DNA of 43,482 bases, from assembly GCA_001275005.1 (NCBI GenBank), contig JWZX01003312.1, positions 1 through 43,482 on the forward strand. Direction: 5' to 3'. Position numbers and translations under genes: made by a program. The notes below the pieces were generated by a model. The model did no database searches. It had not been told where the DNA came from and worked only from the letters and a program-made list of their open reading frames with translations. Source of the stretch: Chrysochromulina tobinii (Eukaryota > Haptophyta > Prymnesiales > Chrysochromulinaceae). How positions within the stretch are numbered: position 1 is the first letter of the stretch; the number at the start of each line of letters is the position of its first letter. Positions 3,542-35,100 of the stretch are shown piece by piece.

Positions 3542-6500
3542 ATGTTTTGGTGGTTGGCATTTCTGATGGCTCCTCGAAAGCCGTCTTCGAAGGCACTAGC
3601 AGCTGAGGTTGTGCCCGTCATCATTGACGAGCCGCAGCTACAGGTACTGCCAGTCGCCAGTGACGATCGCCCCACGGTCGTGGAGAAATGCCGCCTGAAG
3701 GGCAAGTGTTTCGAGGAGCAGGTGACGGTGAGAAGCGAAGCGTCCTATGTAATTGAGGCCTGCAACGAGGATGGCGTCCAGCGCCCAGTGGGTGGCGACC
3801 CTTTCTTCGTGTACATTCGTGGACCGTCCATGATTCGTGCGAGGGTCACCGATAACAACGATGGGACGTACCTTGTGCAGTGGAAGCCGTCCACATCAGG
3901 CACGTACACAGTTGCCGTCTCGCTCCTCGGCGTGAACTTGCCCGGCTCGCCGGCTACGGTTCACGTGACCACGACGAAACCCTGTCCGATGAAGACGGTC
4001 GTGCGCGGTGAGCACCTTCATCACGCAGTCTCGCGCCAGCAACACAACTTCGACGTCCTCTTCAAGGATAAGTTGGGGAAAGTGGCACATGCGGTCGACC
4101 TCGACGTGTTCGTCGAGCCGCTCCCGCCAAACAGCCCGCGCTTCCGCCTTCACGAGACCTTGGTCGCCGCCAAAGAGGCCGCGGCCGCCGCCGTGGTTGC
4201 GACCCCCGCGCCCAAGGCCAAGAAGACCAAAGCGACAGGCGCTACAAAAGGTAAGGACGCGCAGCTCAAGGCGCAGCAGGAGCGCGAGAAGGAGGAAGCC
4301 GAGCAGGCTGAGAAGGAGTTGGAGGAGAAGCTCGTACGCGAGCGCAATGCAAACAAAAGAAACAAGAGACCTTCCAAAGAGTTCCCGCCCATGCCAGCCC
4401 TTCTCAATCTAGAGAAGCTGAGCAGTGGCGGTGGCGGCACCCCGCGCCGTGAGTACTCGGCCCAACGCGAGGCCGATCGGCAGGGCAGTTCCCGCACCGG
4501 CACGGCGCGAAGTGCTCGCCCGGACCGACGACCAGAGAAGCAGGTCACGGTGCGCCATCGGATGATGCGCGTGAAGGTGGGCGACAAGCCGTTGCTCGTG
4601 CGCGCTGAGGCACACAAGGGATCGGAGGAGGTAGGGCGCCTGTTGCCGGGGCAGGTGGTCACAATCATCGAGGAGCAGATCGACGAGGATGGGGAGGTGC
4701 GCGCATGCATCTCGCTCGATTCGATCGGCGATGCGGTTGACGACGCGGCCGCCTCCTACCGCTCGGAAGTCCCCGACGCTCACTACGACGCCGCGCTCGG
4801 CACGCTCACGACGACGCCCAATCCGTCGCATCGAGGGGTAGGGACCGTCCGTCCACTCGCGCCGCGCATCGGGATGGGCATGCTCAGCTCGGCTGCAGCC
4901 TCGCTCGGCCTCGGCGGGAAGCTCCTTGGCGCCGTGGACCCCGCCCTTGGCGCCAAGGACCCCGCCCTCACGGCCCCCACCGTCGCCATACGCAGCTCCG
5001 ACGGTGCGAATGCCGCGCCGGAGTCCGCCGTGGTGAGCGCGGGGGTGCCGACGGCGGCCGTTTTCGTGGACGCGTCAGACACCGCGCGGTCCCGAGAGGC
5101 CGCCAGCGAAGAGGGCGCCGATTTTCGCAGAGGCAGCAGCAGCAATAGGAGCCGACCCTCCAATCAAAACGCATCGTTCGTGCCGGTGAGTGGCGCCAAG
5201 GCGCGTGCGCCTAGCGCCGCCCAGCCCAGCGCAGCACGCACGACGGGATGGGTGACGCTAGTCAAGAACGGCCAGAAGCTCGTCTCGTCCCGTGTGCAGC
5301 TCGGCCCCGGCTCCCGCCGGCAGTACATGCAGCAATGGGCTCGTCGTAAGGCGAATGACCGCGCGATGTCCGCGCCCGTCGGCGCCGACGGGCGCCCAAC
5401 CGAGGCGCCCGCCGTGTTCAAGAATATGCCCACCCGCAACGAGATCGAGGCAGATCCATCGGGGATCGCGTTTGCCTTTGGGGGAGTCGAGCCCGGTACA
5501 CTGCATGCACGTGGCCAGTTGCTCGAGGTGCACAAGGCCGCGTACTCGGTCGGGCGTGCCGGCCAATACCTGCTGCACGTGCGCATGCGCCAAGCGGCGT
5601 GCTCCCTGCCAGGCTCGCCCTTTGTACTCACGGTCGTACCGGCAGGCGCGTATGCGAAATCCTCCAAGCTCCCTTCCCATCCGCTGAGTGGGATGGTGGG
5701 TACGGCGGAGAAGGACGGGTGCGAGTGCGAGCTGAAGACGTCGGATAAGATGGGGAATCCCTGCATCCTTGGCGGTGCCAAGGTCGAGATTCTCATCGTC
5801 GAGAAGGCGGGCGACCCGAACGGCCGCACCAAGCCCTCCAAGCCCGCCAAGGGCGGATCAGACCTTGCAGTGGGCTCGACCGAGGCACGCGAGAAGGCCA
5901 TCAACACTGTGGTGGTGGACAGGGGCGATGGCACGTACACGTTGCGCTGGACCTCGAAATTCTCGGGCACCTTCCGCACGCGCGTCGTGATCGACGGCGA
6001 GGACGTCGTCGGATCACCTACCATCTTCAAGCTCATCTCGTCCACACCGGACCTTACCAAGACCGTGCTCACCAGTGAGGGGCTCAAGAGCGCCATGGCG
6101 GGCCGCCCCTCGACGGTGCAGATCGCCTTCGTCGACCAGTTCCTCAACACGGCCTCCCCTAACTCAAAGTTCCAATTCGGCATCGCTCTCGTGCCGCGCC
6201 ATGGTGGCGAGCGTGATAAGGTGGCCAAGGTGCCCGAGCATAAGTTCCAAGGGTCGTGGACGGGCGGCGCGACGGGCATCTTTGAGCTCCAGTACGTGCC
6301 CACGCAGGCGGGCCAGGCGGATCTGCACGTGTGGTGCATCCCCGAGGGAAAGGGCGAGCGGCTCGCCCTTCCGGGCTCACCCTTCCATCTGCACATTGCC
6401 GAGGGCCCCGCGAGCGCCGTCGCATCGGTCGTCGAGGGCTGGACGAAGGTCATGAAGGACGATAAGAATGAAAAGTTCGCCAAGGACAAGAATGCGGACC

Positions 6501-10852: not shown

Positions 10853-13110
10853 ATGCTCGTCGGCGAGCTGGGAATGCCTCTCGGCGAGCTGGGAGTGCCT
10901 CTCAGCACTTTGGTCAAAGCGCGAGTCGGCGACGTCTACAGTGGTCAAAGCACGAGTCACGGGAGTGCATGTGTAGACGTCGCCGACTGGACTAATGGGC
11001 ACGGTAAGACGTGCACAGACTACGCCTTCGCGTGCGCCGACGGCGACTTCAAGCCCGAGTTCCGCTGGCTGGCTGGAATGGAGTTCCACTCGCCCGAGAC
11101 AGCGTGCTGCGCGTGCGGTCGGCAGACGCATGGACGGTCGCGGCCGCCGCCGCCGCCGGAAGTGCCCAAAACCGTGCACGGGTACTCTTTCCACATCTCG
11201 TCGTACTGCCGCGGCGCCGACCGCGAGGTGAAGAAGCCCACGTTCGCAGATTGCGAGTCGCACTGCGCGAGCAGGAAGTGCGCGTGCGCGCACTTTGGCA
11301 ACGGCCTGTGCCGCATGGGCTACACGTACCTCGGGCTGATCCACTCCAAAGGTGACTTCAGCGCGATGGTGCGGCCCGACGCGGTGTCGGACCCGGGTGC
11401 GCTCGCGGCGCAAGCACGCGAGGAGGCTACGCCAGCGGAGACGTGCAGAAGTTCGCTCGCGCGCCGCATGCCGCCGAAGTTCTACATGTACGACGGGCCC
11501 GAGTTCCTCTGGGGCGAGCGCCTTGCTGCGTGCTACCATCGCAAGTATGGGCACGCACCGTGGGCTATGGCCAAGTTCTTCAAGAACAACACGGGCTACA
11601 CCGAGGCGGGGCCGGCGCCGCAGGAGGATCTGTCACACGCGCTCTGGCTGCACACGAGCCTCGTGCGCCACCGGCATCGCACCAAGGACCCGTCCGCCGC
11701 CATGCTGTACGTCGTTCCAGCCTTCGGCTCCCTCTCGGAGGCGACCGGTACGTGTGAAGGGAAGACTCACACCGAGCGTCTGGCGGACGCTGCGGCGACG
11801 ATGAAGCGGAGTCCGTGGCTAGCCACGGCGGCCGCGCGGCACGTCGTGTACGCGGCCGCGGACCGGTCCGACCTGTCTCCCCTCGGCGAGCTGGGCATGC
11901 TGCTCAGCAAGGCTGGCGTGATGGCCTGGTGCACGAGCCCATCGCGCTGCTTCGGGCGCTTCACGAGGCGCGTCGAAATCCCTATGCTACCGTTGCTCTC
12001 GCTCATGCACCCCAGAGTGCACCCGCGCCTCGTCGGCGAGGCATGCCCGCGGGAGCGCGATGGGAGCGCGCGAAGCGGCGTGCCGCGCCGTCACACCACC
12101 GTCTTCTTTCGGGGCTCGCATTGCGATTCGGTCGCGGCCCAGCAGGTACGCGTCAAGCTCGCCGACCTTCGCTGCATGCAGGTGCTCACCACGGCGCCCT
12201 CTTTCCACAGGTACGCGTCAAGCTCGCCGACCTTCGCGACCTAGGCGAGGGCACGACAGTGGACGTCAAGTTCACGCGCGGTGGGCCCAAGCTCAGCTCG
12301 TCGGCGCGCACCGCGCTCGGAGGGAAGGACGTGCGGATGCCGTACAACACGGACCTGTACGCCCAAGGGATGCTCCTTCGCGGCATGCAAGTGCTCACCA
12401 CGGCGCCATCTCCCCACAGGTACGCCCAAGGGATGCTCCGCGCGGACTTTTGTGTGCTGCCGAGAGGGGACGAGGCCAACCCGGGTCGACGTCTTTTGGA
12501 CGCAGTCGCTGCTGGCTGCGTGCCGATGATCATTGGGGATACGATTCGGCTGCCTCTCGCGCCGCTCATCGCGTACAAGAACTTCACCGTTCGTGTGCCC
12601 GAGTCCGAGTTCCTGCGCGACCCGCACGCGGCCGTGAACGAGGTGCTCACGACGGCGCTCACACGCTGATGACCTCTGATTGCCTCTGATTGCCACTGAT
12701 TGCCTCCCTCATTGCATGCAGGTGCTCATGACGGCGCTCCCCACGCTGATGACCTCTGATTGCCTCTGATTGCCACTGATTGCCTCCCTCATTGCATGCA
12801 GGTGCTCCGGACGGCGCTACCCCACCTCGGGGCGCTGCGCCGAGCGCTCCTCGGGGCACGCGACCAGCTGCTGCTCGGCACGGGTACCGGCCCGCTCGCG
12901 GCCAACCACACGGCAACCGCGCACGGGTCCGACCTCGCACTCCTCGCGGCGGGGCGCACTTTCTGCCCGAGGGCGCCTGCCACATTTAAGGCGTGCGGCT
13001 TCGACGGCCTCGAGCAGGTGGTCCCGCGCTCAGCACCCGCCACCAGAGGCAGTACTGCACCCCGTCCCGCACACGGCACACCACGCGCAACAATCGTAAA
13101 GTATGTGTGA
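10853..13110 (+). CDS. Exostosin-like GT47 glycosyltransferase, four exons
   Basis: Exons 10853-12145, 12211-12356, 12420-12642 and 12802-13110 join in frame to 656 residues. N-terminal residues about 40-90 form a Cys module (CVDVADWTNGHGKTCTDY ... CCACG) of the CxDxxxWxNGxGxxCxDY type that I associate with algal and stramenopile surface proteins. A second Cys-rich segment of about 60 residues follows. The GT47 domain starts at about 205 (PPKFYMYDGPEF), continues through LYVVPAFGSL and TVFFRGSHC, and carries the hallmark RADFCVLPRGDEANPGRRLL with DAVAAGCVPMIIGD and VRVPESEF. This family transfers GlcA, Gal, Xyl or Ara in the Golgi. All three introns start with a copy of the next exon. The start is uncertain: no signal peptide is visible, and the first 35 residues contain a 21-bp duplication plus a fragment resembling 11882-11909, so an upstream exon may be missing. 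Confidence 0.8.
10924..10988. repeat. Perfect 17-bp inverted repeat with 31-bp loop
   Basis: Arms AGTCGGCGACGTCTACA (10924-10940) and its exact reverse complement (10972-10988). The loop repeats part of the sequence just upstream (GGTCAAAGC, then G/A, then CGAGTC). It lies at the uncertain 5' end of the GT47 gene and could fold in RNA or be a remnant of a small inverted-repeat element. Confidence 0.7.
12146..12210 (+). mobile_element. Introner-like intron 1 of the GT47 gene (family A)
   Basis: 65 bp, phase 0, GT...AG. Bases 12146-12172 are identical to the first 27 nt of the following exon (12211-12237). The last 40 nt (12171-12210) are the family A core, GCTGCATGCAGGTGCTCACC then ACGGCGCCCTCTTTCCACAG. 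Removing the intron restores the GT47 frame (QQ then VRVKLADLRD). Confidence 0.85.
12357..12419 (+). mobile_element. Introner-like intron 2 of the GT47 gene (family A)
   Basis: 63 bp, phase 2, GT...AG. Bases 12357-12376 are identical to the first 20 nt of the next exon (12420-12439). The core at 12380-12419 matches that of intron 1 with few differences. It is 3n long and has no stop, so retention would add 21 residues. The spliced form gives the conserved LYAQGMLRADFCVLPRG. Confidence 0.85.
12643..12801 (+). repeat. Tandemly duplicated intron 3 of the GT47 gene
   Basis: 159 bp made of two near-identical units, 12643-12721 (79 bp) and 12722-12801 (80 bp). Each begins with GTGCTC, resembles the start of exon 4 (GTGCTCCGGACGGCGCT) and ends in TTGCATGCAG. 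Each unit carries four CTGAT motifs in the series CTGATGACCTCTGATTGCC and CTGATTGCCACTGATTGCC; CTGAT fits a branch-point consensus. Splicing 12642 to 12802 is phase 0 and gives NEV then LRTALPHL. Using the inner acceptor at 12721 would run into a stop. Confidence 0.8.
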
Positions 13111-13305
13111 TCTTACCTTGTGTTCCTTTTACTCGAACGAGAGTGTCGACAAGACAAAAGTGTTTTTTAGTGTCAAGAAGTTCCGCCAAAGTATCCGGAT
13201 ACCGAAAGCGGCCGCTTTTAATTTGATTTTGGACCAAAATTGGAAAAAAAGGTACTTGAAGCGGCGTCTCGGTTCTCTCATTGCGCACGTCCATCAAGGC
13301 ACTCA

Positions 13306-16300
13306 ATGTCGAATCAGGCCTTCCTCGCACGGCAGCGTCGGATTGCCCAGGAAGCGCCCGAGGCTCTGTTTCTTGAATCTTTTACGACAAAGAAGCCACC
13401 AGTGCCAACAAACGTGTCGTCGGTGAAGACCCTTCGTCAGCCCAAAGAGCAAGAGCCGCCACCACCGCGAACCGCGATGCGTAGATTCGTAATCGAGCCG
13501 CTACAGGCACTCAACATGATGCTCAACTCGAAGACGGTTCAGACGCTGCTGTACGCAGCCTTCGTGTTCACCACGCAGTTAGTCATATACACGCTGCGTG
13601 CTCAGGAAGAGTACTACCTCGACAAGTTCTACACTGACACGCTCATGTGAGTGACGCGACCGCGACCGCGACCGCGACCGCGACCGCGACCGCACGCGCA
13701 CGCACACGCGCGTGGAGCCCCTCTTGCCCCCCCCCGCTGTTGCTGAGCTGCCGCCGCGTGCGTGAACAGCGCCAACGTCTTCGACGGAGATCTCAATAAA
13801 TTCTTCACCATCCGCCGCCCTGCGGACATCTGGCAGTGGGGCAATGCGGTGCTGTGGCCTGGCCTGCTCGGCAACCTCGGCCCCGAGAACTCACAGCAGC
13901 AGGACGAGGGCGGCCGCTTCCAGTCATGGCAGCCGGACATGGCTGGGACGACCAACTTGACTAGACCTGGAAGCCCCTTTTACAACAACGACCTTCTGCC
14001 CGATGGCGAGGGTTACCTGGGGACCGGTGGCGGAGGAACTCCTCCGACGGTGGCGGAGGTCGTCGACCGCATGAACCAATTCGATTGGACGGACGGCTTA
14101 CGCATCCTGCAGGTACGTGCCGCGCCAACGAGCGCGGAAAGCTGTGGTTCAGCGACCATCGGTGGCAAATGCTATCCAGAGATGGGCAGAGATGGGTACA
14201 ATGATGACACGGCGCCGTTTGGATTCAATTGGACTCACAAAGAAGGCAATGCGCCCCTGAGCTACCCATTCCTCTGGCACTCAGCGGTGGAGATGGGCTC
14301 GGCCCCGTTTATTAGCTCGTCAGCACCCTCGAGCCACCGCGAGTTCTCTGGCGACGGCTACGCCTCCTTCGTCATCCCCTTCTTCTCGGATGAGTACTTG
14401 CCAGATCAGCGGGGCAAACCTTGCGTGAGCGGACGCACGGCTTCCGGGCCCTGTGTGAGGGACTTCACGCCGCACCGCATCATGCGTGCGAAAGCTCTCA
14501 CGAGAGTGCCTCGCTACTTCTGTGTACGGCTCTCGTGGGATGCTGAGCACGTACACCAGCTGTGTGACCCGAACGATCCCAATAACAACAACCGGACCAC
14601 AGGCATCGTGCGTGGCGCGACTGTCGAGTTCTGGAACGATATGAGGCGCGCGCAGTACGTGGACCCGGCGACACGGATGCTCGAAGTTCGGGTCCCCCTA
14701 GCTTCGAATCCCGCGGGCGTGCGCTCCACCGCACGGCTGATGTTTGAGTTCACCTCGACAGGCGGGGTGCTGCCGTCGTATGACACGATGACGCGCGTCG
14801 CAAAGGACTCCTCGCTGGACGATCTGGAGTTTTTGGTCCTCATCGGCCTTGCATTCTGCATCTACTTCGGTGCGATGGAGATTTTTGAGATCATCTCAAT
14901 CGGCATCAGCAGGTACGCCGCTGCCGCCCCCCTCCTTCAAGCCCCATCAACCCCTTCTATCACCCTACCCCTGCTTCAACGACCTGCCTTGCCGATGCCT
15001 GAGGCCCCTCCACGCTACCGTCTATTCACAGCTACATCTCGGATATGTGGAACTTGATGGACTGGACGGTGTACAGCCTTTACGCCTTTGTCTTCCTCCG
15101 ATCGAAGACCTACGTCGAGCACGTGCGCAACCCGGTCTGCGGAGGGATCTGCACCACGATTGGCTTCCTCGACGACCATGTGCAGGTGGAAGATGCACGT
15201 TCGCTCAAGTTTTCCCTCGCGCTGTGCGTCTGCGTGCAGCTGCTCAAGATCATGAAGATCTCGGCGATCCTCGTCCCGAAAATGGGCTTGACGCCCTCGG
15301 TGCTCAAGAAGGCGCTTCCAGACATGATCTTCTTCTCGTTCGTCTTTGCTGTGTCGCTCTTCGCATTCTCCAACATGCTCTTCATCCAGCTCGGCACGGG
15401 CATGAAAGAGTTCTCCACGCAGTTCACTTCCTTAATCACCCTCGGGCGTGCCCTCTTTGGCGACTTCGACATGACCGAGGTCATCTCCAACTCGCCGAAT
15501 TGTGCGTCGTCACTCCATCTTGCCCTCCTTGGGCGCTCGTTGCGTCCGCCCGGACCTACCCAACGGCTAGCCAGCCCCCCTTCACCCTCCACAAACTAGC
15601 CCATCACCGCTGCTATTCATCGGAGTATAACGGGTTGTGGGGTCGAATCTCGTGACCGGGCAGACGGCAACACGATCCTCTTCCTGCTCTACCTCTTCTG
15701 CTCGATCTTCGTCCTGCTCTCCATGTTCCTCGCGATGCTCGGCGAGGCACAGGCCAACTTTCGTGACGACCAGCTCAACGCGCGCAAAGAGGCTGCCCGA
15801 AAAGGCGAGCAGCTGCCACCAGAGTACGGCATCCTCCACGAAGGCCAAAGGGCGATCGTGAAGGGTTTGATGCGAGTTCCAGTACTTAGGAAGCTTGTGA
15901 AGGATCCCGATGCCCACTTGGAAATGCACGAAAAGGGCACATTGATGTCCGTGTTCCAGGAGCAGATGGAGCAGATCGACCGCCTCGATGAGCGCTTGCT
16001 CGGTCTGAACGACAAAGTTGAAGACCTCATGGCCGCCTTCAAGGCTAGTATGAGGGGTGGCCCCTCCGCCTCGCTGCAGTCGCAGCAGTCCCAGGCGAAC
16101 TCACGAGGCAGTGACGGAACGCTCGAGCGCGTCGAGCGCCTGCTGCTCGAGATGCGGGAGATGCACGAGATGCGGTGGGAGAGCGACCCACGGAGACGGC
16201 ACAAGGCGAGCGGCAGGGAAAGTTCGTTAACGAGGTCCTTCAAGGAGATTAACGGACCGGGGGAAGAATCTCGGGGAGAATCTCGGAATGCCCGACCAGA

Positions 16301-16523
16301 CGATCGGAAGGCACCAGAAGCCACTCACACTCAGGGAGAATCTCGTCCGGGACATTCTCGTCGGAGAGACTCCTCCGGTGAACGCCGGGATCAACACCAC
16401 AGGCATGGCAGTAGAGAGCACCCGGGGAGGAGCACGTCAAGCATCACCAAGGAGCACACCTATACCAGGGAGCGTGCCCACAACGGATCGCCGGTTCTCG
16501 CCAGTCACAAGCTTCGAGCGTGA
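13306..16523 (+). CDS. Polycystin-2/TRPP-like cation channel, four exons
   Basis: Exons 13306-13646, 13770-14912, 15032-15501 and 15664-16523 join in frame (937 residues). I chose ATG 13306 (MSNQAFLARQRR). S1 lies at about 77-97; a large extracellular loop (about 115-460), as in the polycystin TOP domain, contains cysteines and NxT/NxS sites. S2 is at about 468-490 (LEFLVLIGLAFCIYFGAMEI), S3 at 499-519 (MWNLMDWTVYSLYAF), S4 at 553-572 (FSLALCVCVQLLKIMKI) and S5 at 590-615. The pore segment LITLGRALFGDFDMTEV (about 629-645) matches the polycystin filter region, and S6 is at 653-677 (ILFLLYLFCSIFVLLSMFLA). The cytosolic tail has a short predicted coil (LERVERLLLEMREMHEM) and an Arg/Ser-rich end with repeated GESR motifs; no EF-hand is seen. 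Related channels act in cilia, flagella or the plasma membrane; the location here is inferred. Confidence 0.9.
13647..13769 (+). other. Polycystin intron 1
   Basis: 123 bp, GTGAGT...ACAG, phase 2; joins TDTL to ANVFDGDL through an ATC codon. Contains a (GCGACC)n microsatellite at about 13654-13692. No copy of the next exon is seen. Confidence 0.8.
14913..15031 (+). other. Polycystin intron 2
   Basis: 119 bp, GTACGC...TTCACAG, phase 2, C-rich. Joins IISIGIS to SYISDMWNLMDW. No duplicated exon sequence. Confidence 0.8.
15502..15663 (+). other. Polycystin intron 3
   Basis: 162 bp, GTGCGT...GGGCAG, phase 1. Joins the pore-side ISNSPN to YGNTILFLLYLF of S6; unspliced reading ends at a stop before S6. 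Confidence 0.8.
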
Positions 16524-17577
16524 TGGAATAGGGCTACAAGGGCAAGGATACAATACGTTAATACAATACGGGGTTAAATACGGGGTACTGACATGCTGCA
16601 CTCGCGCCAGAACTCGCAATTTTCTTTGGGCTTTGAGTTGTGGCAGCGGAGCGCGGCCACGTTCGTCGTACTGAGCACCCTCCCGGACCCGTACTATCTC
16701 CAGAATAGGGGGATTCAGAGCTCGGCCCCTGGCCAGCTCTCGGGTATGAGTGTTTAATGAGTGTTGAGTCGACTAAAATCATCATACCTTCTAACTAGAA
16801 ACACGTGCGGTGATTGGACTGATTTCTGATCGTGCACAGACCACAGAAAGACCTAGCTCCTAGGCGGGAAACAATCATCATGAATCTAGCGAGCCATAAG
16901 CAATGTCGACGCGTGCGGCAAGAACGAAGAAGCCCCCGGACTTGAACGACGTAAAAAGGTCAGGGGCAGCGGGACCCACGCGCCTCCCCGTCCCCAAAAG
17001 GCGCGGCAAATTAGTAACACATGTAGTAACGTTTGGCTTTGGGCGCCCGGCCGGGCGCCCGCGCACAAACGTACAACCCGACCCGCGACCGCAGGTCACT
17101 GGTTACAGCACCGAGATCCGCGCGCACCATGTCCATGTGCTATGTTCAGTGCTATGTTCTCGGCTCAGCCTCATACTCACACAAGCCCCGCTGCTTTCCG
17201 ACACAGCCGCACCGCCCCCGGCCGCTCGGGGGCCCCGATGCAGGTTGCAGCCAGCGATCGATGGCAGCCGGCCTGCTTCGCGCCCGCATGCCGCATCTGT
17301 CTCCGACCTGCACACAAACGCCGTGCTAAACCGAACTGCGGTCCTTACGCCCACTCGAGGCACTCCCACTTTGTACCGGTACGCGTGCTCCATGCCTCAC
17401 CACATGCGCCGCCCCTTCCCCGGCTTCCATCTGCCCGACAGCGCGGTCGCTACGCCCACGACGGATGCCCGCGCCCTTCTCTGCTCTTCGAGAGAGCCCG
17501 TAAAGCGCCAGGGTAGGGGCGGAGCATCTCGTCCCCATCTCTTCAAATCTCGTCCTCATCTCCCCACTCGGCCCGTT
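16524..17577. other. Gap between convergent polycystin and myosin genes
   Basis: 1054 bp between two converging 3' ends. The first part (16540-16860) is relatively AT-rich with an ATACAATACG-type short repeat near 16549-16570. A long frame at 16903-18042 has no recognisable domain, runs opposite the myosin tail and looks like a GC-rich shadow. I see no gene I can support. Confidence 0.5.
17041..17060. repeat. Perfect 20-bp palindrome
   Basis: GGGCGCCCGG directly followed by its reverse complement, in the gap between convergent genes. It could form a hairpin in either transcript; a terminator or 3'-end role is only a guess. Confidence 0.7.
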
Positions 17578-20500
17578 TCAGATCGCGAGCATCTCGTCCT
17601 CACGACCTCTCGACTCGTCAAAGCGCGGCTGCGGCGGCAGCCCCGCCGTCGCGCGCTCTTGCGCAAGCGGCGCGGCCGTGAGGTCGGAGAAGATGGCCGC
17701 GGGGGGCGAGGCAAGCAGCCCGTGCGAGCCCGCGAGGGTGGAGGCGCGCGGCTTCATATTGGCCTCCACTTTGACCTGAGGCGCGCGCAGCCCCCGCGCA
17801 GCTGCCGGCACCGGCCCGGCGCTCGGCGAGGCGGTGGCTGGTCCCATGGCCGTGAGAGTCGCGGCCCACGAGCTCTTCGAGAGCATATCTCCGGGAGAGA
17901 GCCCGAGGAGATCGCCCTCGCGCGCTGTCTCCATCGGAGGGAAGTCCTCGAACTTCATCAGCATTGGCGACTCGGGCGGCGGCGCTGGCGGCGGCGGCGG
18001 CGCCCGTCGCTGGCTGAGCGGCGGCGACAGCAGCGAGGCTAGCGATAGCTTCTCCTCGGCCACGGGCGGCGCGGCTGCCTTGGCCTGCAAAGCAGCTGCC
18101 GCCATGCTGGACGTGGTCGGGGGCGGCGGCGGACCAGGCAGCTTCGGCACGGTCTGCTTCAGCATCGAGGCACGCCGGTGAACCGGCAGTTTCGAAGTGG
18201 CGGCGCCTGGTACAGCGGCGCTCGGCAGCAGCGACTGGCGACCTGCGAGCGACTGGCGACCGGCGAGCGACTGGCGACCGGGGTTTGGCAGCAACGACGG
18301 GCGCGGCAGCAGCGACTCGCGTACCTTTGCGGGCGGCTCCTCCGCCGGCGGCGGCGGCGGGGGCGGCGCCGGCGCCAGCGGTGGAGAAAGGAGCTCGCCG
18401 AGGGGGCTCAGCAGGCTCGAGCCCTCGACTGGGCTCCGCAGCTGTCCATAGGCGGCGGCGCTCACGGCGGCGCTCTCCATCCCGGACACGTGGCTCGCCG
18501 TCCTCAGAAGCCGCCCGGGCGTGTCGAGGAGCCGCCCGGGCGTGCTCACGACGGCGGAGACGGCATTCGAGAGCTCAAGGCGGCATGCTTCGAAGAAGCC
18601 GAACGGGGTGCGCGCCTTAGCCTTGCTATTGGGCGTCGGTTGCGGGCGCGCGTGTACCTTGCTGCTGGGCGTGGGTTTCGGCTCGGGCATGGCCTGCAGC
18701 ATCACGCCCCTTGGCTGCTGATACGGCGGCGCCTCGACCACAGGAGCCGCCTCCTTGTGCTTCGCGCCGCCGCCTTCGGCGCCGCCCTCGGCTTCACCCT
18801 CGCCGCCGTTGGCATTGGCCGCGGAGCCGAAGCCAGCAGGCGGGATGCTCACGCGAGGGGAGAGCGGCGCACGGCGTGCGGAGAAGGGCTGGCTAGACGG
18901 CGCTGTCGTGGGCGGCGGCCCTCCGTCTGTGGAAGGAGTCGTCGTCGGCTGCGCTTCGAGAGCGGCCTCCGGCGCGGGCGTCGCGGCCAGTCCCGCCGCC
19001 CACGACGGCGCCCCTGGGCTCGTGAGCGAGGCTGGGGGGGGCAGCGGGGCGAGGTCGTCCGCCCACGACGGCACCCTAGGGCTCGTCAGCGAGGCTGGGG
19101 GAGGCAGCGGGGCAAGGTCGTCGTCGTCGTCGATGTCTTTGTCAATGGCAGCAATGGCCGCCTCGGCGGCCGCCTTGGCCCGGGCCGCCGCCGCCACCTC
19201 CGCCGGCGACGCCGCCACCACCCCTCCCGTGGCCGTGAACTGCCGGCTGCCCAGCACGGCGCTGCCCAGCACGGCGCTGCCCAGCACGGCGCTGCCCGGC
19301 ACGCGCGGCGTCAGGGCCTCTCGGAGCTCACGGTCCTTGCGCATCGCCTCCTCCCGAGCAGCCAGCAGCTCGGCGTCCTTGCGCTGGGCCTCCTCCGCGA
19401 GCGACGAGAGCTCCGACTCGAACTCCATGAACAGCCCGTGCTTCTCCTCGCGCTCGGCCTGCGGGTCGGTCGGTGTCGAACGCGCAGAGCCGTCAGCGCA
19501 ATCACAGGGCCAACATAGAGGCCATCCGAGTGGCCATCAGAGGCCATCCGAGAGGCCATCAGAGAGGCCATCAGGGAGGCCATCAAGCGCACTTGTGCAC
19601 GCCGCTCCGCCTCGAGCATCTTCTCTTCCAACTCCAGCTTCTCCTGCTCCATCCTTTCCATCTTCTCGGCCATCATCACCTTCTCCTCGAGCTCGCGCAG
19701 CTCCACGCGTACCTGTGGGGAGAGGGCGCCGTGATGAGCACTTGCATGCAGCGCAGGGCACGGGCAGCTCGACGCGTACCGCGAGCAGCCGGCGCCAGCG
19801 CCCTTGCAGCCGCATCGCCGCCACCATCGCCGCCAGCTCGGCCGGCATCGCCGCGAAGTAGCCGCCAACGCGCATGCCGCTGCGCATGCCGCTGCCGCCC
19901 GTGCTGCCCGTGCCGCAGCCGCCCGCCCCCGCGTTCGTCGCGATAAGTGCAATCGTCGCGCGTGTGTGCCGGTCGTACGCCGCGCGCTCGCGCTCGCGCG
20001 TCTTGCGTCGCTCCTCGCGCAGCCGACGTGCGGACAGCCGAGCTTTGAGCCCTCGAGCGCCCGCCTCGAGCTTCGTCGCCGCGCCCGTCCGGTGCATTTG
20101 CGATGCGAGGGCACGGGCGGCCGCCTCGCGTTGCTTGACGGCTGCGTTCGTCCGTCCCTCGAGCGACGCACGCTTCATGGAGTAGTGCTTGCGAGCGAGC
20201 GCGCCGCGCACCGCCGTCTGCACCTTCACCACCGCGAGCAGACGATGGACCTGGCGTGCGCGTTCCTTGCGCGCCGCCGCCGCCGCCTCGCGCTTGCTAG
20301 CGGCCACCGCTCTGAGTGCCGAGAGGGCCTTGCGGGCGAGCGCCGCGCGCCACACGCACTGCAGGCGCACGCACGCCGCGCGCTCGGCCTTGGCTTGCCC
20401 TTTCGCCTCCCGCTGTGCCCGCGCCGCCACCAGCCGGCGCTGCTTCTCGGCCTTCTCGTCGGCCACCGCTGCGCGGCGCGTCGCCGCGACGCGACGACCG

Positions 20501-32140: not shown

Positions 32141-35100
32141 CCAATCGCAGCAGCCACGGCCGCAACGCGAGCGCTTCTGCTTCCTTCTCCATGTCGTCGC
32201 TGCCTGCGCAGCCGCCCAGCGTCGTGGATCTCTTCCTCTCGCTCAACGGACAGCAATTCACACCGCTCGGCTTCGCAGGGGAGCGGTTCACATACTACAG
32301 CGAGCCGATGATCTCTGCAATCTCGCCCTCGGGGGGTGCCATCGAGGGCGGCACGCGTGTGACACTCTCTGGCTCCTGGCCAGTCGAGACCGACGAAGAG
32401 GGCGATTCGAGGCGCCTGCTTCGCTGCCGCTTTGGGCGCGAAGTGGTGCGTGCGCAGCGCTCGGCCCACGGCGACCTCGTGTGTGAGTCGCCGCGGTTGG
32501 CTCGAGTCTTCGAGGCGGAGCTCACGAGCGTCGCCGAGCAGATGGCGCCCGACCTGCGTAATGCGTCGGTGCTGCCGCTCACGCAATGGCAGCTGGGAGA
32601 GGCGACGCGCGCCGGTAATGCATTCTACGCGCAGGACACTGCCCTCGAGCTGAACGCTGTCGCAGACCATGGTGTGGCACAGCCTCTCAGGGTCAGCTTC
32701 AACGGGCTCGACTACACCCGTTCACAGTTGCCGTTCCGATGGCTACTCCCGCCGCGCCTCGTCGATGTGCGACCCATCCTTGGCCCTGCGGACGGCGAGA
32801 CGATCGTGAGGCTGCGTGGCGAAGGGCTATGGGACGTGCCGCACTTGCAATGTCGCTTCGGTCCCATCGCTGTAGATGCGACCGTCGTCTCCGAGTGGGT
32901 TCATGCCGACGGCACGCCACAACGCCAGCTCGAGGCAACCTGTATCTCGCCTCCAATGGTGACCTTTGCCAATGCCACCTCCACGGCCACCGTCTCCGTC
33001 CCCTTTCTCGTCTCTTCGAACGCGCAGCAGTTTGTGGGCGAAGGCTTGGCGTTCACGTACTACGCCCCCACGCCGCTCAGCCAGCCGATGCGCCCGACTC
33101 TCGGCCCCCACTTGGGCGGCACGTACATTGGCCTGCCCCACGTACCCATCATCCGTGGAGCACGCTACCTGTGTCGCATCGGCGGCCCTGAGGGGCAGCT
33201 GGTGCCCGCGCAGATCGGACGTAGGGCGGGCCTGCCGAGCGCCCAGTACAGCGCCTACTTCGGAGATGCCGAGGACGACAACAGCATCGCCGCCGGCCAG
33301 GGTGCCCAGTACAGCGCCTACTTCGGAGATGCCGAGGACGACAACAGCATCGCCGCCGGCCAGGGTGGCGGCGATGCCGAGGATGCGAGGAGCGACGATG
33401 GCGTGGCCGTGCGGCCGGAGTTGATGTGCGCGATGCCCTTCGTCCCCGTCATGGCCGACGTCGGCATCGAGGTCTCCATGAACGGACAGCAGTTCGCGAC
33501 CGTCGATGCCAACTTCAGCTACCACTCCCCGATGGTCACCGCGGGCCTCGCGCCGCTGAGCGGCCCTTCCGACGGCGAGACGGACGTCCTCGTCCGCCTG
33601 GTCCACGTGTCGCTCAGCCCGCGCCAGCTGCTCGCGACGGCGCCCCAGATGCCTCCCGAGTACGTCTGCCGCTTCGAGGACACGTGGCGAGCCGCCGCGT
33701 TGGCCGAGCCGCCGCCGCTGCTCCGCGCGGATGAGCAGCTCAGTCCGAATCGAGGCGAACTCGGAACGACCATCTCACATGAGAACCGCTCGTCGCACTA
33801 TGCTCTTGAGGCTTTGCGCGCCCTCGAGTGCACGAGCGGGGGAGCCGAGAGCGACGTGGCCGCATGCGCGGCGCCCTTGGGCATGCTCACGCTACGCTGC
33901 AGCACGCCGCCCATGAGGGCCGTGCGCACCTCTGGCGTCGGCCCAGTGGTGACCGTCCCAATCGTCTCCGCCTCGGTCAACGCTCAAGACTTTGCCGAGG
34001 CGCGCAGCGCCGCGTTCCATTACTATCCGCCACCGCACGTCTCGTCCGTCCATCCGACGCTGGGGCCGCGCGCGGGGCGTACCATGCTGACCGTTCGTGG
34101 TTCCGGCTTGTACGGGCGAGGTGAGCACCACCTGTGCCGCTTCGTGATGAGGGATGATGAGCCTTCGAACCCGCTGCGCGGTGTGCCTCGTAACGCCACC
34201 GAGCGCTCGCTCGTGGCGCTCTCTCAGCAGCCTCCTCCCCTGATGGATTCGGAACCGTTCTACCCTCTGGCTGGGGCGGACGCCCTTTATGAGCCGCTGC
34301 CGCTGCTCACGCCCGCCAGTTATGATGCGCCCAGCCGCACGCTGCGCTGCGTCACCCCCGCCATCTGGCCAGCCGAGAATGCTGCCCAAACGGACGCACC
34401 GTCGATTCGGTTACGTCTCGAAGTGAGCGCCAACGGGCAGCAGTACACCTCTGATGGCGTCGAGTTCCTCATGCATGCAAGCGCCGTCCTGAGCCAATTC
34501 ACACCCTCGGGTGGACCAGCGGCCGGCGGCACGGCCATCCGCATCAACGGCTTCGGGCTGGCCAACGGCTCCGAGTACGTCTGCCGCGCGGGCGCCGCGC
34601 GCGTCCTCATGGGCGGCCGAATGGACTATGGGACGGGCCAGCTGCACTGCACCATGCCGTCGCATGCAGCATGCGAGCTCGCGGGCACTGAGATCGGCAT
34701 GAGCGCCGTCGCGGTCTCCACCAACGGGCAGCAGTTCTCGGCCGACTTTTTCTTCGAGTTTGCCGCGCCGGCCGCGGTCTCCCGCATCACGCCCGCCGCC
34801 GGCCCGCAGCTGGGCGGCATCCTCGTTCAAGTCCAAGGCGCCAACTTGCGAGCAGGCCACGCCATCTCCGGCAGTGCGCTGCCTGCGCTCTCGTGCCGCT
34901 TCGGCGAGACTTCTGTGCCGGCCACCTTTGAGAATGCGAGCGCCTCCGTGCTCTGCACCTCGCCCGCGCGCCCGCCCGGCGCGCTCGCCTTTGAGCTGAC
35001 GAGCAACGGCCAAGACTACACGCGCTCATCGATGGTGTGGGTGCAATACGTCGCGCCGAGCCTCTCCGCGCTCCAGCCGCCCGCGGGCCCGCAGCGCGGT

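What the first reader, a model, noticed from the sequence alone, without database searches (positions are those of the whole stretch)
12146..19779. Family A introners: one 40-nt core ends three introns in two unrelated genes
The last 40 nt of the introns at 12146-12210, 12357-12419 (GT47, plus strand) and 19713-19779 (myosin, minus strand) are almost the same: TGCATGCA(A/G)GTGCTCA(C/T)C, ACGGCGCC, then a pyrimidine-rich CCACAG. The host genes share no ancestry and the introns are only 63-67 bp, so ordinary descent cannot explain it. Introner elements are known from Micromonas, Aureococcus and other algae; this looks like an unusually compact family.
Basis: partly seen in the sequence, partly recalled or inferred. 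Interest (0 to 1): 0.88.

Follow-up and report, generated by a model that had tools for sequence, protein, structure and literature searches.

The report
New introns that duplicate their target
In an unnamed microbial eukaryote, very short new introns appear to have been pasted into many genes, and most of the copies examined also double a 10 to 48 letter piece of the host gene, which then supplies the splice signal that the pasted piece lacks; this gives an unusually readable record of how new introns can arise.

Summary
Observation confirmed. The three introns lie at the stated coordinates and share a 24-nt core plus a CACAG end. In the host genome (53.15 Mb) 2,241 places match the core pattern within 3 mismatches; the reversed control has none. 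Splicing restores the GT47 and myosin frames. 7 of 9 aligned GT47 relatives read through all three GT47 intron sites.

The rest repeats the start of the following exon (27, 20 and 22 nt). In 124 of 177 testable copies the intron is [host repeat, mostly starting GT][element ending AG], followed by the exon's own copy of the repeat; repeats are 10-48 nt. A second class brings its own 5' splice site and usually takes AG from the repeat. No terminal inverted repeats were found. A few copies carry host sequence from another intron, so existing introns seem to be the templates.

Best reading: introners of an unusual variant, perhaps spread by reverse transcription of excised introns at staggered nicks. 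The RNA step is inferred; DNA template switching is not excluded.

The parts
12146..12172 (+). GT47 intron 1, left host repeat (27 nt); supplies the 5' splice site GT
   Evidence: identical to 12211-12237
12173..12210 (+). GT47 intron 1, element: core, pyrimidine tract and CACAG 3' splice site
   Evidence: core from 12174; frame restored by splicing
12211..12237 (+). Exon copy of the intron 1 repeat
12357..12376 (+). GT47 intron 2, left host repeat (20 nt)
   Evidence: identical to 12420-12439
12377..12419 (+). GT47 intron 2, element with core and CACAG
12420..12439 (+). Exon copy of the intron 2 repeat
19758..19779 (-). Myosin intron, left host repeat (22 nt)
   Evidence: 19 of 22 identical to 19691-19712
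19713..19757 (-). Myosin intron, element with core and CACAG
   Evidence: also carried by relatives P0001-P0003
19691..19712 (-). Exon copy of the myosin repeat
12643..12801 (+). Third GT47 intron: two tandem family B units (79 and 80 nt), each a GTGCTC... host repeat plus an element ending TTGCATGCAG
   Evidence: frame restored when all of it is removed

Best explanation
These are introners (mobile elements whose insertions become spliceosomal introns) of an unusual kind. SHOWN: (1) a 24-nt core recurs in about 540 exact and about 2,200 near copies. (2) Class 1: in 124 of 177 testable copies the intron is a 10-48 nt duplicated piece of target, mostly beginning GT, then a 5'-variable element ending in pyrimidines and AG, then the exon copy of the target piece; removal restores the exon. 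(3) Class 2: an element of about 54 nt beginning GTACGTTGATTGCC and ending near the core's end, beside a duplicated target piece that usually ends AG; the element brings the 5' splice site and the target the 3' one. (4) A few copies carry host-derived sequence from another intron's duplication, so existing introns served as templates. INFERRED: an excised intron, whose 3' end is set by splicing, is reverse transcribed at a staggered nick beside an AG|GT-like site (target-primed reverse transcription or partial reverse splicing). Truncation of the cDNA loses the intron's 5' part, and fill-in of the stagger makes the duplication that replaces the lost splice site. Selection keeps mostly spliceable products.
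For: Copy number and control. Repeat beside 124 of 177 copies above the 99th percentile of a flank-swapped control. In 67 clean repeats (at most 1 mismatch, at least 14 nt) 61 begin GT, against 4.2% GT inside the repeats. Repeats anchored at AG|GT: 29 of 1,468 sites against 53 of 19,565 at other NN|GT sites. Class 2: 13 of 31 with a clean repeat, 11 of 13 ending AG. No terminal inverted repeat better than shuffles. Frames restored; frame continues after splicing in 55 of 79 copies called sense. Donor carry-over in hand-checked cases. Reverse transcriptase genes in the genome, one non-LTR by eye.
Against: 53 of 177 copies show no repeat. Frame mismatch in 24 of 79, and 12 of 124 called antisense. 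No RNA step is shown: precision at AG could come from selection alone. No poly(A) or other tail and no enzyme linked to the element. Core-only copies without CACAG exist. Class 2 copies end at the core and not at an AG, which excised-intron copying does not predict directly. The pair count behind the donor claim has an uneven control: 18 pairs adjacent to the core, 1-4 at six control offsets but 13 at one.
Confidence: 0.5

Rival explanations
1. DNA template switching or repair of staggered breaks: a copying strand jumps by microhomology to an existing intron, copies a few tens of bases and returns behind the point where it left, duplicating the target. No RNA is involved; the fit to splice sites comes from selection.
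For: Variable repeats; donor introns as templates; 5-6 nt overlap between core end and repeat start in class 2 copies L107, L109 and L122; Daphnia intron gains with 4-12 bp repeats are ascribed to staggered breaks (PMC4202315, passages).
Against: Such repair has no reason to pick one core about 2,200 times unless selection or local copying does it; core-only, unspliced copies still carry the same core.
Confidence: 0.3
2. A non-autonomous DNA transposon like other introners, but with unusually long target duplications.
For: Recruiting a splice site from a target duplication is known in introners (PMC9860276, section 4). High copy number.
Against: Duplication length varies from 10 to 48 nt, whereas transposases usually give a fixed length (general knowledge); no inverted ends; element ends vary and donor host sequence is carried along.
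Confidence: 0.15
3. Plain tandem duplication of AGGT-containing exon pieces (Rogers model) making introns without any mobile element.
For: The host repeat alone supplies one splice site; the model is described in PMC4974935 (passages).
Against: Each intron also holds a non-host insert shared across unrelated genes.
Confidence: 0.03
4. Assembly or bin artefact.
For: The genome is in 2,253 contigs and short repeats can mis-assemble.
Against: Frame and GT47 motifs return only when the segments are removed; proteins from other public contigs carry the same insertions, P0001-P0003 and P0122.
Confidence: 0.02

Closest known systems
Introners surveyed by Gozashti et al. 2022 (PMC9860276; sections 4, 15 and 23 read)
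   Same: Repeated new introns in unrelated genes; target duplication can supply the missing splice site, either 5' or 3'.
   Different: Earlier families are given 3-9 bp duplications there, many with inverted ends. Here 10-48 nt, no inverted ends, and one core found in both splice-site arrangements. Their rule that similarity starts within 5 exonic or 10 intronic bases at both ends would, as I read it, pass over most class 1 copies.
Micromonas introner elements (PMC3879977, passages)
   Same: Authors proposed copying through RNA (reverse splicing, reverse transcription, recombination).
   Different: No target duplication is mentioned there ('direct repeat' and 'target site' have 0 occurrences); their route would not make one.
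Amoebophrya introners (PMC7789003, passages)
   Same: Many repeated introns with direct repeats at the borders.
   Different: Direct repeats of 3-5 nt and inverted repeats of 8-20 nt, non-canonical splice sites.
Daphnia intron gains (PMC4202315, abstract and passages)
   Same: Direct repeats between new intron and one adjacent exon.
   Different: 4-12 bp repeats, ascribed to break repair, not to one repeated insert.
Non-LTR retroposons using target-primed reverse transcription (recalled, no call)
   Same: Variable target duplications, 5' truncation, precise 3' junction.
   Different: No tail and no linked enzyme here; the template looks like a spliceosomal intron.

Membership tests
Introner | Near-identical introns at unrelated positions | tested here: met
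Introner | Intron recently gained (relatives lack it) | tested here: met
   7 of 9 aligned GT47 relatives read through all three sites; protein level only, DNA not seen
Introner | Spliced out of RNA | not testable with these tools
   only reading-frame evidence
Introner | Similarity reaching near both intron borders (survey rule of PMC9860276) | tested here: not met
   class 1: host repeat of 10-48 nt precedes the shared part; a survey rule, not a property of every introner
DNA transposon / MITE | Terminal inverted repeats | tested here: not met
   three typed element versions, no better than shuffles
DNA transposon / MITE | Fixed duplication length | tested here: not met
   10-48 nt in 124 copies; 14-47 in 67 clean ones
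Non-LTR (TPRT) retroposon | Variable target duplications | tested here: met
Non-LTR (TPRT) retroposon | Variable 5' ends with a fixed 3' end | tested here: inconclusive
   class 1 ends at AG with filler of 0-36 nt 5' of the core, but anchoring at AG was part of the test; class 2 ends near the core instead; copies cut inside the core look rare
Non-LTR (TPRT) retroposon | Enzyme source shown to act on it | not testable with these tools
   26 RVT_1 matches in the genome, 3 read, one non-LTR by eye; no link shown
Tandem-duplication intron (Rogers) | Intron made of duplicated exon alone | tested here: not met
   shared insert in every copy listed

The most novel reading that the evidence does not exclude
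Spliceosomal introns in this lineage multiply as introns: an excised intron is reverse transcribed straight into a staggered nick in another gene, and the target duplication rebuilds the splice site lost by truncation. Any intron could then seed new ones, and the host-derived scraps carried from donor to recipient would give some new introns a traceable parent.
Probability: 0.38. Interest if true: 0.92.

Novelty: new variant of a known kind. Interest (0 to 1): 0.73.

Why it matters
How new introns arise is an old open question. Here many copies keep the duplicated target beside the insert, so target, insert, orientation and in some cases the donor can be read from DNA, and divergence between the two repeats gives an age. 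Because a large part of each intron is host sequence, surveys that ask for similarity at both intron borders would tend to miss such families, so this kind of intron gain may be under-counted.

Tried and rejected
Chance and artefact: rejected. Terminal inverted repeats: sought, not found. Relatives of the core elsewhere: the exact pattern gave no match in genome contigs or viral contigs; the first holds bacteria and archaea only, so this says little about eukaryotes. Rfam: no family in the window at the gathering score.

Lineage: three protein searches gave close hits only from unnamed metagenome sources. In the 120 of 2,068 myosin hits shown, named algae (Closterium, Diacronema lutheri) stand at 36% identity, too far to name the organism. 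HSP90 was located but not cut out.

An unanchored repeat search drowned in simple repeats of the CTGATTGCC type and was replaced by anchored searches with controls. Of the 6 'other' cases, two are family A read on the opposite strand and two are one locus on both strands.

I first took the core-only copies in L027 for antisense insertions. The codon model does not bear this out: of the 8 plus-strand L027 copies without acceptor, 4 were called sense, 1 antisense and 3 unclear, so I leave their orientation open.

Microhomology at the 3' junction as a general rule: dropped. Overlaps of 5-6 nt were seen in L107, L109 and L122; L112 and L119 are tandem arrays, where overlap is expected; most of the other clean copies have none.

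Sample bias: each genome search lists only the first 100 places, and the copies fetched were mostly zero-mismatch cores on low-numbered contigs, so well-preserved copies are over-represented.

In print: the searches 'introner' with 'target site duplication', with 'target-primed reverse transcription' and with 'microhomology', and one with 'long target site duplications', showed no introner with duplications this long in the listings or in the passages I opened. Most subscription papers are not held; Huff et al. 2016 is not.

Full report
Observation. The genes are an exostosin-type GT47 gene and a myosin. Splicing restores frame: the unspliced GT47 frame meets a stop after intron 1, while the spliced one runs LADLRDLGEG...MPYNTDLYAQGMLRADFCVLPRGDEANPGRRLLDAVAAGCVPMIIGDT and on past the third site, and the myosin reads LLAVRVELRELEEKV. 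In the own genome 2,241 places match the 25-mer pattern within 3 mismatches, 0 for the reversed control; 542 are exact 24-mers, and in 349 places CACAGG follows within 30 nt.

In each window intron the first 20-27 nt repeat the start of the following exon (27 of 27, 20 of 20 and 19 of 22 identical). I collected copies from the window and 100 stretches of the own genome: 281,364 nt, 233 distinct copies, 180 with an acceptor, 177 testable. In 124 of 177 the sequence right after AG is repeated upstream of the core with a score above the 99th percentile of a control that uses other copies' right flanks; 34 have no mismatch and 38 have one. The repeats are 10-48 nt long and the introns 57-99 nt. 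The left repeat begins GT in 93 of 124, GC in 11 and GA in 4. In 67 clean cases it begins GT in 61, while GT makes up 4.2% of repeat interiors. In 53 of 177 no repeat was found; some of these may be old, since the repeats that are found differ by 6.6% on average.

Two complementary classes. Class 1 brings the core, the pyrimidine tract and AG and takes GT from the duplication. The core holds CTCAC, which would suit a branch point (recalled consensus, not tested); its A lies a median of 27 nt from the end of the intron. Class 2 begins GTACGTTGATTGCC and ends near the core's end. In a first list 26 of 41 candidates exceeded the 99th control percentile, but at least five of the 26 are not true copies (three simple-repeat rows of L020, and rows of L019 and L109 without the core). 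In a stricter list 13 of 31 have a clean duplication (at least 14 nt, at most 2 mismatches), and 11 of the 13 end AG. Two of the 13 (L112 268, L119 257) sit in tandem arrays.

Core-only copies. 53 of 233 copies have no acceptor by the rule. With a slightly different rule, one search lists 67 copies without CACAG, 45 of them with a repeat of score 12 or more; in 24 of the 45 the unit is a multiple of 3. In L027 this holds for all 9 core-only units (8, one), which suggests in-frame insertions into coding sequence. Their orientation is not settled.

Other families. In window plus 19 long stretches, repeats anchored at AG|GT occur at 29 of 1,468 sites, against 53 of 19,565 at other NN|GT sites. 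Of the 29, 15 hold family A, 8 family B (CTGATTGCC-rich, most ending ATCAG) and 6 others, two of which are family A read on the other strand and two one locus read on both strands. The 3' end of family B has 1,697 places within 1 mismatch.

Sense and frame. A codon model trained on window genes got the strand right in 163 of 183 held-out pieces, and strand plus frame in 160. It called 79 of 124 duplicated class 1 copies sense, 12 antisense and 27 unclear; 6 were too short. The frame continues after splicing in 55 of the 79 and does not in 24.

Gain polarity. Of 17 GT47 relatives found, 9 were aligned with the query: 7 read through all three sites, P0122 contains the translated intron 1, and P0127 ends before the sites. 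The relatives' DNA was not seen. Myosin relatives P0001-P0003 (99, 97 and 91% identity) contain the translated intron, so that insertion is older than their split.

Templates are existing introns. In some copies the filler between repeat and core is host sequence of another copy's repeat: L048 to L058, L076 copy 763 to 304, L026 copy 4299 to 3238, L103 to L066 and, less cleanly, L022 copy 4017 to 5240 (polarity judged by eye from the printed flanks). In class 2, L110 carries GCCTCGCCATCATTCCA, which stands at the ends of the L119 and L120 introns and not in the exon flanks printed for L110. The pair count has an uneven control: 18 pairs adjacent to the core, 1-4 at six control offsets but 13 at offset 60/60, perhaps from tandem arrays and paralogues. 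I therefore claim only the hand-checked cases.

Mechanism. Long, variable repeats, no inverted ends, shifting element ends and donor carry-over do not fit a transposase with fixed ends. They fit either reverse transcription of excised introns at staggered nicks or DNA template switching. I lean to the first: in class 1 the right end coincides with AG, one family recurs about 2,200 times, and the genome encodes reverse transcriptases (26 RVT_1 matches), one of the three read being non-LTR by eye. But my search anchored at AG, selection for splicing alone could give that precision, and class 2 ends near the core rather than at an AG. Repeat length and filler length trade off (r = -0.70), which suggests that intron-size limits shape what survives.

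Known ground. Introners that recruit a splice site from a target duplication are known, with duplications given as 3-9 bp (PMC9860276, sections 4, 15 and 23 read). Its rule that similarity must start within 5 exonic or 10 intronic bases at both ends would, as I read it, exclude most class 1 copies. An RNA route was proposed for Micromonas (PMC3879977, passages). Daphnia gains show 4-12 bp repeats (PMC4202315), and a manual survey of 213 introns found 4-30 bp repeats near splice sites, mean 11.4 bp (PMC11782384, abstract and passages). I call this a new variant of a known kind.

Possible birthplace. The core's second half (GTGCTCACCACGGCGC) matches the GT47 exon beside the family B units at 13 of 16 bases, and the first duplicated copy there at 15 of 16; family B units end TTGCATGCAG, like the core's start. 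Family A may have arisen when a family B intron picked up exon sequence at such a site. This is a lead only: the pattern was written from the window, so the window's exact match there is by construction.

Noticed in passing
window 12641-12825: Two 80-nt tandem family B intron units; their end plus the next exon bases resemble the family A core, a possible birthplace of family A.
   Followed up: partly
L027 1900-3100 (G000 contig C343): Core-only copies as units whose lengths are multiples of 3 (9 of 9), so apparently kept in coding sequence and not spliced; orientation unsettled.
   Followed up: partly
L091 333-483, L019 5614-5833, L024 1513-1586, L013 7024-7243: Tandem arrays of whole units (about 71-75 nt): each insertion recreates an AG|GT site next to itself, so repeated insertion or unequal exchange at one site looks easy.
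   Followed up: no
L014 6254-6328: A third family (CTTGACTTG-rich) between perfect 17-nt repeats starting GT.
   Followed up: no
class 1 copies, 124 with repeats: Left repeat starts GC in 11 and GA in 4, so GC or GA 5' splice sites may be used.
   Followed up: no
window 19446-19590, minus strand: A likely second myosin intron built of GATGGCCTCT-type repeats; no host repeat seen by eye.
   Followed up: no
window 33241-33366: A perfect 63-nt in-frame tandem duplication inside the long TIG-domain reading frame.
   Followed up: no
L126, L127, L128: Reverse transcriptase stretches that read by eye as Ty3-like, non-LTR and possibly DIRS-like.
   Followed up: partly
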